From Dactylorhiza incarnata (Eukaryota; Streptophyta; Magnoliopsida; Asparagales; Orchidaceae): 64,000 nucleotides of DNA. The notes beneath the pieces were generated by a model that saw nothing but the letters and a program-made list of their open reading frames with translations, had not been told where the DNA came from and made no database searches. Made by a program: the position numbers and the translations under genes. The stretch lies in NCBI GenBank assembly GCA_033032865.1, contig JAWHQI010000013.1:744001-808000 (forward strand), in the 5' to 3' direction. Shown here in pieces: positions 35,405-39,059 of this stretch (position 1 is the first letter of the stretch; every line of letters begins with the position of its first letter).

Positions 35405-35409
35405 TTAAA

Positions 35410-35548
35410 TGATAGAGTGAATGAATGAATGAATACCACAATAAGGATACATATGTATATATACATAAGAGGGGTTCCCAACACCTAGAGGTGAGCCTAA
35501 GAGAGTCTACCACCATAATATACAATATAATGCATAATACATCTAACA
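35410..35548 (-). repeat. E7 3' LTR (139 bp)
   Basis: Element strand TGTTAGATGTATTATG...CACTCTATCA. Its first 66 bases recur at 38236-38301. LTRs this short fit the Ale/Retrofit lineage. Confidence 0.85.
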
Positions 35549-35579
<31 letters not shown>

Positions 35580-35583
35580 CCCC
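35549..35583 (-). other. E7 polypurine tract, expanded G run
   Basis: 28 C, one T and 6 C on the plus strand, that is G6 A G28 on the element strand, directly at the LTR edge. A normal tract is much shorter, so this is an expansion. Confidence 0.85.
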
Positions 35584-35589
35584 TCAAAC

Positions 35590-36908
35590 TCACGGGGGTT
35601 CATACACCGAGAGTTTGGATAATAGATAAGCATGTTGAGACCGAGTCTGCGGCTTAGTCATCAAGTCTACAAGCTGCTGCTCAGAAGGAACAAAGGAAGG
35701 AGCAAGAGTTCCCCGACCATACTGCTCACGAAGGAAGAAAGCATCCACCCCGATGTGCTTGGAAAGAGAATGCTTCACCGGATTCAAGGTGATCTGAATG
35801 GCACCGGTGTTATCACAGTGGAGTGGAGTGGGATCCGGAGAAGAGACACCAAGATCCTCAAGGAGCCAGCGGAGCCAAATAATGTCCTCAGTAGTAGTAG
35901 TCATGGCACGCAGCTCAGCCTCAGTACTGGAACGAGAAACCCCGATCTGTTTCTTGGACTTCCAGGCAATAAGTGAAGTACCCAAGAATAGACAGAAACC
36001 AGTAACAAATCGGCGATCAACGGGATCACTGGCCCAAGTAGCATCCGAGTAAGCACGAAGGAGCAGAGAACTGCTACTGGAGTAGAAGAGACCACGTGAA
36101 ATCGTCGCCCGGAGATAACGCAGCAGCCGCAGTAGATGACCGTAATGCACAGAGGTGAGCGCACCAACAAACTGGCTCAAAACATGAACAACATGTGCAA
36201 TGTCGGGCCGAGTAATAGTAAGGTAGACGAGGCTCCCGACAATGTGACGATAACGAGTAGGATCAGAGAGTGGAACCCCATCATCCGGTCTTAACTGAAG
36301 GTGAAGCTCCATAGGGGTGTCCACGGTGCGAGAGTCAGAGAGAGCAGCCCGAGCTAAAAGATCTGATGTGTAACGCCGCTGAGAGAGCTGAAAACCACGG
36401 TCTGTAGAGGTGACCTCAAGGCCCAAGAAATAGCTCAGCTGTCCAAGATCAGTCATCTGAAATTGCTGCTGGAGGTGATGCTTGACGAATGTCACATGAG
36501 TAGGGTCATCACCAGTAATAATCATGTCATCCACATAAAGTAATAGAAGAGTCCGGCCGCGAGAAGAGGAGTGCACAAATAAGGCTGGATCATGCGGGCT
36601 CGGCTGAAAACCGACGGCAGTAATGGCCGAACTGAAACGAGCAAACCACACGCGGGGCGCCTGCTTGAGCCCGTAAAGAGCTCGTCTCAAGCGACAAACA
36701 AGTCCTGGAGGAGAGGAAAGACCGGGAGGAGGGAGCATGTACACCTCCTGTTGAAGGTCACCGTGAAGAAAAGCGTTCTTCACATCGAGCTGGAACAGAG
36801 ACCAGCGACGAACAGCTGCAACAGCAATAAGAGTGCGGATCGTGGTCATGTGAGAAACAGGGGCAAAAGTCTCATCATAGTCACGTCCATGCTCCTGCTG
36901 AAAACCAC
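35590..36908 (-). pseudogene. E7 pol 3' half: RT and RNase H, open but 5'-truncated
   Basis: An uninterrupted frame from TTIRTLIAVAAVRR to LSKLSVYEPP (about 419 residues). RT motifs: QLDVKNAFLHG, YGLKQAPRVWF and active site YVDDMIITGDD. RNase H motifs: YSDATWASDPVDRR, SRSSTEAEL and LHCDNTGAI, with the histidine in KHIGVD. Upstream RT, integrase, protease and gag are replaced by captured DNA. The lack of stops suggests recent insertion. It would not make a working polyprotein. Confidence 0.9.
36860..36908. repeat. 49-bp direct repeat, left copy
   Basis: Starts GGGGCAAAAGTCTCATCATA and is identical to 38161-38209. Both copies are the same piece of copia RT. They flank the captured gene fragment. 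Confidence 0.95.
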
Positions 36909-38160
36909 CCCCGTTGCTCGCGCGATCTCCCGACGCATGTACGGCAGGTCGTCGCCATGCATCCGTATTCGCTTGTCGAACCTAGGAGGGCCCGCCGCTG
37001 CCGGCTGCTGCTCGGCAGGTCGAGTTTCCAGCTCGGCGTTGCGGACTTGGGCGGCCTCCAGGGACAAGCGAGTATCCTCCAGCTCCTTCTCGGCCTGGGA
37101 CAGCCTCTTCGCCGACTCCAGCTCGGCAGCCTGCAGAAGATAAAAAGAGAAAGTTTAGTTTAAACGAGTCTGCAAGATGGAGAGTATCCCAAAAAAGCGA
37201 GTAAAGTCCCGAGGGCGAGTACCTCGAGCTCCTTGACCCGGTTCGCCAAGGCGATCATCTTCGGGCCCTGCACCTTGATCGCATGCTCATACTCGAGCAG
37301 TCGCCTTGCTGTTTCGTGAGCCAGCTCGGCAGACCGCAAGAGGGAGCGCGAGGTCTGGTGAGCCAGATTCTCAGCAGAGGTATCCAGCAGCACCTCGGCA
37401 TCCGCGCGACCATAAAGGGCGAAGGTCACGTCAAAGGCCTCCCCCCTGTCCTCCCAGTCCTCCGACCAGGGGGGAAGGTTGGAGCTAAGGGTTACCTCAT
37501 GGGCGCGCTCAGCCCAGGTCACCAATGGGCGACCATAGGCATCCTCGCTATGGGTGCCCTCGTTGAAGCAAGGATGGCTGCTCGGCTCGCCAGCCTCCGA
37601 GGAATCCGCCTTCTTGCCCAGATCCCTATGGGCAGTCTCCTTCTTGTTCCTCTTAGGCTCGGAGGTCTTAGCCTTGACCACTCGCCTCTTCGAAGTCCCG
37701 ACCCCAATACCGGCGACATTTTGATCGTCGCCATCTGGCGACAAGACGATTGGGGAGGAGCCCCCAACCTCGCGCGCCGATGTCCCCGCACCCCCTTGGG
37801 TAGCGGTCGTCGCCTTCACCGCCGGAGGAAGAAGATCGCATGGTAGAGCTCGCACGCCTGCCAAAAGAAGACCGAAGGTTAGTCTCCTGAATAGAGCCAA
37901 AGGGCGAGTATGACTGATGCTCGCACGAAAGATACCTTCCCCTGAGCGAACTTCCGTGAGCTCGTCTACTCGCCTCCTCCAGAACACCACGTCGAAGCGA
38001 CGATGCCTGAAGGAGTCAAGCAGTTTCTCCTGGCTCTCCTTCAAGAAGGGAACGGCGAAGACATTCTCCGACGGCTGGATGAGTGAGCTGGAGATTCCCG
38101 CAAAGTCGCCCTCGATGGCGACTAGTCGCTCCACCCAGCGTTGGTTCTTGTTTGATGTGC
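36909..38160 (-). pseudogene. Captured intron-containing gene fragment in E7
   Basis: GC-richer than the surroundings. Three exon-like pieces on the minus strand: 38160-37936, 37857-37223 and 37130-36909. Intron 1 (37935-37858, 78 bp) has donor G|GTATCT and acceptor TTTTGGCAG. Intron 2 (37222-37131, 92 bp) has donor GAG|GTACTC and acceptor TATCTTCTGCAG. The joined exons stay in frame; intron 1 also reads through. The product begins TSNKNQRWVERLVAIEGDF, has a basic acidic-serine middle with RRVVKAKTSEPKRNKKE, and a long coiled coil (AENLAHQTSRSLLRSAELAH to EKELEDTRLSLEAAQV). I do not recognise the family; it resembles coiled-coil proteins linked to plant mobile domains or gypsy extra ORFs. Both ends of the gene are missing. 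Confidence 0.75.
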
Positions 38161-38235
38161 GGGGCAAAAGTCTCATCATAGTCACGTCCATGCTCCTGCT
38201 GAAAACCACGAGCCACGAGGCGGGCCTTGTACAAT
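38161..38235 (-). pseudogene. E7 RT fragment next to 5' LTR fragment
   Basis: Encodes YKARLVARGFQQEHGRDYDETFAP, the start of the copia RT region. Its last 49 bp duplicate 36860-36908. It joins the LTR fragment at 38236, so a deletion fused LTR and RT. Confidence 0.85.
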
Positions 38236-38301
38236 ACCTAGAGGTGAGCCTAAGAGAGTCTACCACCATAATATACAATATAATGCATAATACATCTAAC
38301 A
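38236..38301 (-). repeat. E7 5' LTR fragment (66 bp)
   Basis: Identical or nearly so to the inner part of 35483-35548. It ends CATCTAACA followed by the target duplicate TTAAA. Confidence 0.9.
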
Positions 38302-39059
38302 TTAAAAACATGGGTAAAATTTTCGAATAAAATGCGTAGTCAAACTGAAATCATTAAAATACTTTATACTAAAATTTGCATGGATATGAATGATTTGCAT
38401 GCAATAAAATCTCTTTTTTTTGTTAATTTAAATCATAGTGTATTTTAATCTGAAAATTATGATATAGAGCATACAACTACACTCAAGCCTTTATTCGGCA
38501 TAAATTTAAAAAAAACAAGAACTCACAAATACTGTCTTTTCCTTTACCCTTATTCCTTCTCTGATCAGAATTTGTTCCCTCTCTCAATGCAAAAGTCCCA
38601 CGAGTTGGCATCTGAAATAAAATTCATACATATTTTCTTCTCACGCAAAATCTTCCAAAATATGATCTATTAGGAGTTGCAAGTGAGGGGAAATAAATTT
38701 TAAATATAATAATGTGTTTGTATAGGAATCGGACAAGGAAAAGGATTAAAATACCCAAATTTATCACCAAGGACTGCATAAGAAACTAAGGATGGCAGCA
38801 TATGCAAGGGCAACAAGGAGGATGAACCAAATAGCCCAATCTAATTTAAACAGGGTTGATTGCAGAATCAACAATAACCATTTAACAGCCCCTTAATTAG
38901 CACAAGAAAACAGCATCATAAAATCATGAGAATAGGCGCCAATAATTCCAATAGAATAGGCCCAAAATGCAAGACAGCTGCCCTAAAAATGCAAGACAGC
39001 AGCCCTATTTTAAGATATCAATCCTTATAAAACCAGCTCATACTCAACTTTAATAATAG

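What the first reader, a model, noticed from the sequence alone, without database searches (positions are those of the whole stretch)
35405..38306. A copia element captured an intron-containing gene fragment
E7 is closed by identical TTAAA duplicates, so 36909-38160 moved with the element or arrived later inside it. The insert has two introns with good GT-AG borders, stays in frame when joined, is GC-rich and encodes a long coiled-coil protein on the same strand. Intron retention argues against a spliced mRNA source. Capture of host DNA by LTR elements is known, but the retained introns and flanking repeat are notable.
Basis: partly seen in the sequence, partly recalled or inferred. Interest (0 to 1): 0.75.

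Follow-up and report, generated by a model that had tools for sequence, protein, structure and literature searches.

The report
Retrotransposon scrap stuffed into another retrotransposon
A broken copia retrotransposon in a large plant genome holds a 1.25-kb piece of a different, very common retrotransposon, most likely pasted in during DNA-break repair; it is not a captured host gene, though the piece shows that the other element carries an antisense gene that is split by introns.

Summary
The anatomy is confirmed: E7 is a minus-strand copia element (35410-38301) between TTAAA duplicates, with a 1252-bp insert at 36909-38160 carrying two GT-AG introns. The insert is an internal fragment of a high-copy Ty3/gypsy family whose complete copies have LTRs, 5-bp target duplications, gag-RT-RNaseH-integrase and, antisense to these, a Transposase_28 (PF04195) gene: the Retand type. 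The insert is a piece of that antisense gene (best match 97%). Its introns belong to the gene: GT-AG borders in 18 of 18 copies compared; the second intron is well supported, the first probable. Being antisense to the element's genomic RNA, they do not reveal an mRNA or DNA source. Eight of eight fetched copia relatives lack the insert and carry the flanking 49 bp once. The three novel junctions were each found once in the 3.27-Gb assembly, with 0-1 bp microhomology; a 3.5-kb deletion lies 72 bp from the insert. Best reading: one double-strand-break repair event in an already inserted copia, with composite filler. This is an ordinary scar of plant genome turnover; the intron-bearing antisense gene is the more interesting by-product.

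The parts
35405..35409 (.). TTAAA target site duplication, left
   Evidence: sequence; matches 38302-38306
35410..35548 (-). 3' LTR of copia element E7 (139 bp, TG...CA)
   Evidence: matches LTRs of relatives
35549..35583 (-). probable polypurine tract (G run on the minus strand), expanded in this copy
   Evidence: 34 C and one T on the + strand; 7 C in 7 of 8 relatives, 14 in L032
35590..36908 (-). copia reverse transcriptase/RNase H region (RVT_2, PF07727, E 7.3e-55; RNase H part by position, not by a domain hit)
36860..36908 (-). 49-bp direct repeat, copy 1 (copia RT sequence)
   Evidence: family D8; single copy in 8 of 8 fetched relatives
36909..38160 (-). insert: internal fragment of the antisense Transposase_28 gene of a Retand-type gypsy element (minus strand = sense of that gene)
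37131..37222 (-). intron 2 of the antisense gene (92 bp, GT-AG)
37858..37935 (-). probable intron 1 of the antisense gene (78 bp, GT-AG)
38161..38209 (-). 49-bp direct repeat, copy 2
   Evidence: family D8
38161..38232 (-). 72-bp second copy of copia RT sequence, next to the 3.5-kb deletion junction
   Evidence: identical over all 72 bp at 10 other places of the 40 scored; junction found once
38232..38301 (-). truncated 5' LTR (70 of 139 bp)
   Evidence: family D5
38302..38306 (.). TTAAA target site duplication, right
   Evidence: sequence

Best explanation
E7 integrated as an ordinary ~5-kb copia element (TTAAA duplication). Later a double-strand break in its 5' half was repaired inaccurately. 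About 3.5 kb was lost (half the 5' LTR and, by the usual copia gene order, primer-binding site, gag, protease, integrase and the start of RT), and the gap was closed with composite filler: 72 bp of copia RT plus a 1252-bp piece of a Retand-type gypsy element, taken from its antisense Transposase_28 gene with that gene's own introns. The 49-bp 'flanking repeat' is the overlap between the 72-bp filler and the retained RT or, if deletion and insertion were separate events, the filled-in stagger of the second break. Shown: identity of the insert, empty sites in fetched relatives, junctions found once each, near-absent microhomology, the deletion, conserved intron borders. Inferred: break repair as the cause, its single-event nature, and that it followed integration.
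For: Insert identity: matches spanning at least 1247 of 1252 positions at 40 of 40 scored places (E7 itself included; 3130 first-look candidates), best other 97% at L002, whose longer locus L009 shows no other E7 sequence. Complete gypsy copies with LTRs and 5-bp TSDs: L011, C899, C2488. PF04195 in this gene, which lies opposite gag, RT, RNase H and integrase in the C899 copy. 8 of 8 fetched copia relatives have the uninterrupted site. Each of the three novel junctions was found once at up to 3 mismatches, reversed-pattern control 0. Microhomology 1, 0 and 1 bp. Deletion and insert breakpoints lie 72 bp apart. The insert aligns end to end with internal gypsy sequence and has no ends of its own.
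Against: No ancestral or allelic E7 without the insert was available, so event order and number are not shown. A 1.25-kb filler is long for templated repair (recalled expectation). The nearest relative of the insert differs at 38 aligned sites, so the donor copy is not identified; only 40 of 3130 candidates were scored. L007/L013 shows a second Retand-copia junction about 9 bp from the same copia RT site, which could hint at something less random and was not pursued.
Confidence: 0.75

Rival explanations
1. Two separate events after integration: first a simple 3.5-kb end-joining deletion, later insertion of a Retand DNA fragment at a staggered break whose filled-in 49-nt ends became the direct repeat.
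For: 49-bp perfect duplication exactly bracketing the insert; similar scars are known as patch-mediated repair in rice (title of Vaughn and Bennetzen 2014 seen in two reference lists).
Against: Needs two independent breakpoints within 72 bp in a ~5-kb element, roughly a 3% coincidence by simple proportion (my arithmetic).
Confidence: 0.2
2. Reverse-transcriptase template switching between co-packaged copia and gypsy RNAs made the chimera before integration.
For: Template switching was proposed for complex LTR elements in Triticeae (PMC1950507 passages); E7 is flanked by a proper TSD, so everything inside could have arrived together.
Against: The gypsy genomic-RNA sense is opposite to the copia RNA sense in E7, so simple minus-strand switching onto gypsy genomic RNA gives the wrong orientation; an unspliced antisense transcript, or a switch during plus-strand synthesis, would be needed. 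No sister copies of the chimera were found.
Confidence: 0.1
3. Host gene capture by the copia element.
For: Open spliced frame with introns.
Against: The sequence is a high-copy repeat lying inside complete LTR elements and belongs to a retrotransposon accessory-gene family.
Confidence: 0.01
4. Nested insertion of a whole gypsy element followed by deletions that left only the middle.
For: Nested insertions are common in plant genomes (recalled).
Against: Would leave a 5-bp, not a 49-bp, duplication, and deletions would have to remove both gypsy ends exactly up to the repeat.
Confidence: 0.01

Closest known systems
Retand lineage (Ty3/gypsy, Tat clade) with antisense TRP28 gene (PMC11963269, PMC7264820; passages seen)
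   Different: Here the antisense gene appears split by two introns; 'intron' has 0 occurrences in the main text of either paper
Filler-DNA / patch-mediated double-strand-break repair scars in plants (Vaughn and Bennetzen 2014, title only, paper not held)
   Same: Ectopic sequence inserted with a short direct duplication of the target (from the title and recall)
   Different: Filler here is composite and coupled to a 3.5-kb deletion; size 1.25 kb
Template-switched complex LTR elements of Triticeae (PMC1950507, passages seen)
   Same: Chimeric LTR retrotransposon bounded by one TSD
   Different: Those have two complete cores and an internal LTR; E7 has an internal fragment of an unrelated element in opposite sense
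Bs1-type host gene transduction by plant LTR elements (named in a PMC7264820 passage)
   Same: Foreign coding sequence inside an LTR element
   Different: Source here is another retrotransposon, introns retained, no sign of mobility

Membership tests
Ty1/copia LTR retrotransposon (E7) | RVT_2 reverse transcriptase | tested here: met
   PF07727 E 7.3e-55
Ty1/copia LTR retrotransposon (E7) | TG...CA LTRs and 5-bp target duplication | tested here: met
   the 5' LTR is truncated to 70 bp
Ty1/copia LTR retrotransposon (E7) | integrase upstream of RT | not tested
   that part is deleted in E7; the relatives were not scanned for domains
Retand-type gypsy element (source family of the insert) | gag, RT, RNase H, integrase in gypsy order | tested here: met
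   C899 copy (L035 and L012): gag, RT, RNase H, then RVT_3, zinc-binding and integrase core on one strand
Retand-type gypsy element (source family of the insert) | additional RNase H between RNase H and integrase (Ogre/Retand, PMC6317226 passage) | tested here: met
   PF13456 RVT_3 at residues 77-194, before the integrase core, in L012:3-1922
Retand-type gypsy element (source family of the insert) | antisense Transposase_28 ORF between pol and 3' LTR | tested here: met
   PF04195 E 5.8e-11 in L009 and 1.4e-06 in L011; the homologous gene lies opposite pol and before the 3' LTR in the C899 copy. L009 also has a gag frame on the same strand as the gene, 3.8 kb away, taken to be another element but not examined
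[quoted passage not shown]
   ~94-bp arrays in L009, L010, L012; about half of published elements have them
Retand-type gypsy element (source family of the insert) | RT phylogeny placing it in Retand | not tested
   no tree was made
Double-strand-break repair filler insertion | ectopic source, target duplication or deletion, little microhomology, no terminal structure (definition recalled) | tested here: met
Double-strand-break repair filler insertion | pre-event allele at the same locus | not testable with these tools
   single assembly only
Host gene transduction by an LTR element | source is a host gene outside transposons | tested here: not met
   source sequence lies inside LTR-bounded elements

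The most novel reading that the evidence does not exclude
Retand-type retrotransposons carry a selected, intron-split antisense gene. The introns survive every retrotransposition round because they are antisense to the genomic RNA and invisible to the spliceosome there. The protein can then be made only from antisense transcripts of integrated DNA, which would confine it to the integrated stage.
Probability: 0.55. Interest if true: 0.5.

Novelty: new member of a known kind. Interest (0 to 1): 0.27.

Why it matters
As a capture event it does not: it is a repair scar that joins two repeats, and a caution that an intron-bearing ORF inside a transposon need not be a host gene. The useful by-product is that intron retention is no evidence against an RNA or cDNA source when the source gene lies antisense in a retrotransposon. 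If the split antisense gene is general in Retand, spliced antisense RNA gives a clean handle on a protein family of unknown function.

Tried and rejected
Inverted microhomology: the insert's left end (CCCCGTTGCTC) resembles copia sequence at the break (CCCC-T-GTTGCTC) on the other strand. A simulation with random breakpoints in L029 and L011 reached the observed score in 106 of 3000 draws over all end and orientation combinations, so it was dropped as chance.

Host-gene origin and complete nested insertion were rejected (see rivals). Pfam found no gypsy or Transposase_28 family in the window's own insert pieces: the fragment lacks the Transposase_28 domain itself, which was found in the longer gene of L009 and in one frame of L011. 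The protein search gave only 2 hits, both Platanthera zijinensis, 44% identity, too far to name the host. Vaughn and Bennetzen 2014 is not held. Structure prediction was not used: it would not bear on the question.

Full report
What was checked. The window lies in a 3.27-Gb assembly with 3184 contigs, a plant by its repeat content (inferred). E7 is a copia element on the minus strand. Its + strand ends read TGATAG...CTAACA, between TTAAA at 35405-35409 and 38302-38306. The 3' LTR is 139 bp (35410-35548). Only 70 bp of the 5' LTR remain (38232-38301), with one mismatch to the 3' LTR. The frame between them matches RVT_2 at E 7.3e-55. Inside the RT sequence sits the insert 36909-38160, bracketed by identical 49-bp repeats.

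Copia relatives. A search with the right-hand junction region (window 38100-38306) gave 40 scored places of 2003 candidates. Apart from E7, all 39 match only one part: 38 the 72 bp of RT sequence (or 71 of them) and one an LTR stretch; none spans the LTR-RT or the RT-insert junction. Eight of these 39 places were fetched as longer stretches. All eight run uninterrupted through the insertion site and carry the 49 bp once. L029, L030, L031 and L034 are 4.8-5.1 kb long between their LTR ends, and L033 has two LTR matches at a similar distance. L028 has its LTR matches only about 3 kb apart, and L027 and L032 show no second LTR in the stretch fetched. Compared with L029, E7 lacks about 3483 bp between the 5' LTR remnant and the RT (computed). 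Over 1325 bp of the 3' part E7 is 97.4-98.6% identical to the eight relatives and has 8 private substitutions, so it is a fairly young copy.

What the insert is. The insert matched over at least 1247 of its 1252 positions at 40 of 40 scored places (E7 itself included) out of 3130 first-look candidates. The best other match is L002 at 97%; the remaining 38 are 86-88%. The match to L002 stops at the insert borders, and the longer locus L009 shows no other E7 sequence. L011 is a complete element: LTRs 823-1533 and 8097-8807 are 98.2% identical, flanked by GTGGT on both sides, 7985 bp in all. Two longer complete copies were placed by their LTRs: C899, about 13.3 kb, TSD CTGCC; and C2488, about 13.6 kb, TSD TTATC. 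In the C899 copy, gag and RT with RNase H (L035), then a second RNase H-like domain and integrase (L012), lie on one strand. The gene that contains the insert lies on the other strand, downstream of integrase and before the 3' LTR. In C2488 integrase is likewise opposite the gene. One result does not fit at sight: L009 has a gag frame (9159-9899) on the same strand as the gene; I take it for a neighbouring element but did not examine it, and L009 is not shown to be a complete copy. The gene's product carries Transposase_28, PF04195, in L009 and L011. Tandem repeat arrays lie in the same region. These are the published features of Retand elements (PMC11963269, abstract and passages; PMC6317226, passages). 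No RT tree was made and the primer-binding site was not matched to a tRNA, so 'Retand-type' rests on structure.

Introns. Splicing 37858-37935 and 37131-37222 leaves a 360-codon frame without stops. The spliced product aligns at 40% identity with two annotated Platanthera proteins. They lack the translation of intron 1 entirely, and have 8 extra residues where the 92-bp intron 2 would encode about 30. I compared 18 copies: E7 and 17 of the other 39 scored places (the top seven and ten picked down the list). Both introns have GT and AG in 18 of 18. The eight border letters are invariant in all, while 41 of 74 and 37 of 88 inner intron positions are. Intron 2 is well supported: with intron 2 left in, 0 of 18 copies are free of stops; with both out, 11 of 18 are. 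Intron 1 is weaker: it is 78 bp and can be read through in 15 of 18 copies, and 10 of 18 copies are free of stops with intron 1 left in. For intron 1 speak the invariant borders, the absence of a codon-position pattern (14, 17 and 14 of 26 invariant), the Platanthera models, and L048 and L049, whose 77-bp introns leave 0 and 1 stops when removed but 6 and 8 when kept; L047 shows the opposite (9 against 2). Against a generally intact gene: 7 of 18 copies have stops even when spliced, 4 of them exactly one; in L006, L008 and L047 exon A has an indel that shifts the frame, and L002 has a 2-bp exon indel near the end. Exons show dN/dS of 0.20-0.54 in the 12 comparisons that involve E7, L002 or L003; three comparisons among the near-identical L004, L005 and L007 gave 0.54-3.4 and are uninformative; L006 and L008 were left out for their frameshifts. 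Third codon positions vary most (193 of 360 invariant against 252 and 262). The gene is therefore real and was under selection, and its introns are its own. No RNA evidence was available.

The introns are antisense to the gypsy genomic RNA. They would stay in every DNA copy and in the genomic RNA, so their presence in E7 does not distinguish a DNA donor from a cDNA or RNA donor of that strand. The source is not a host gene.

Mechanism. Each new junction (copia to Retand left, Retand to copia right, 5' LTR to RT) was found once in the assembly at up to 3 mismatches, and the reversed control 0 times. Junction microhomology is 1, 0 and 1 bp. The gypsy RNA sense is opposite to the copia RNA sense, which speaks against simple minus-strand template switching of the kind proposed for Triticeae complexes (PMC1950507, passages). 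The deletion and the insertion lie 72 bp apart in an element of about 5 kb; one repair event with a two-part filler explains that without coincidence. Two events remain possible. Patch-mediated insertion with tandem duplication in rice is known to me from the title of Vaughn and Bennetzen 2014 in two reference lists; the paper is not held.

Is the split antisense gene new? Two papers on these antisense genes contain the word intron 0 times in the main text (PMC11963269; PMC7264820; supplements not seen). A 2025 review says plant LTR elements generally lack introns, naming Ogre and EVADE as exceptions (PMC12786077, passages). Searches listed no paper that, by title or abstract opening, reports introns in this gene; most listed papers were not opened, and subscription journals are mostly not covered. 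So it is at most 'not found here'.

Verdict. Observation confirmed, interpretation mostly replaced: an ordinary repair scar between two high-copy retrotransposons. Interest is modest and comes mainly from the intron-bearing antisense gene.

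Noticed in passing
L009, L011 and window 36909-38160: The antisense Transposase_28 gene of this Retand-type family has two introns with GT-AG borders in 18 of 18 copies compared (intron 2 well supported, intron 1 probable) and dN/dS below 1 between subfamilies.
   Followed up: yes
L011:1557-3220: A second antisense pair of reading frames in the same element (SR-rich, then coiled coil) seems to be joined by another intron, roughly 2725-2819, bordered by GTACTT and TGCAG.
   Followed up: no
L013:9524-9605 (same as L007:3925-4006): Another Retand copy ends directly against a short copia RT fragment, in the same relative orientation and within about 9 bp of the copia position broken in E7; chance or a fragile site.
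   Followed up: partly
35549-35583: The polypurine tract of E7 is a run of 34 C plus one T on the + strand, against 7 C in 7 of 8 relatives and 14 in L032; an exact 35-C run also lies at 39061-39095.
   Followed up: partly
40071-40179: Rfam reports a glycine riboswitch (39 bits, cut-off 32) overlapping a tandem repeat in plant DNA; probably a chance match.
   Followed up: no
L009:9159-9899: A gag frame (PF03732) on the same strand as the Transposase_28 gene, against the rule seen in C899 and C2488; probably a neighbouring element.
   Followed up: no
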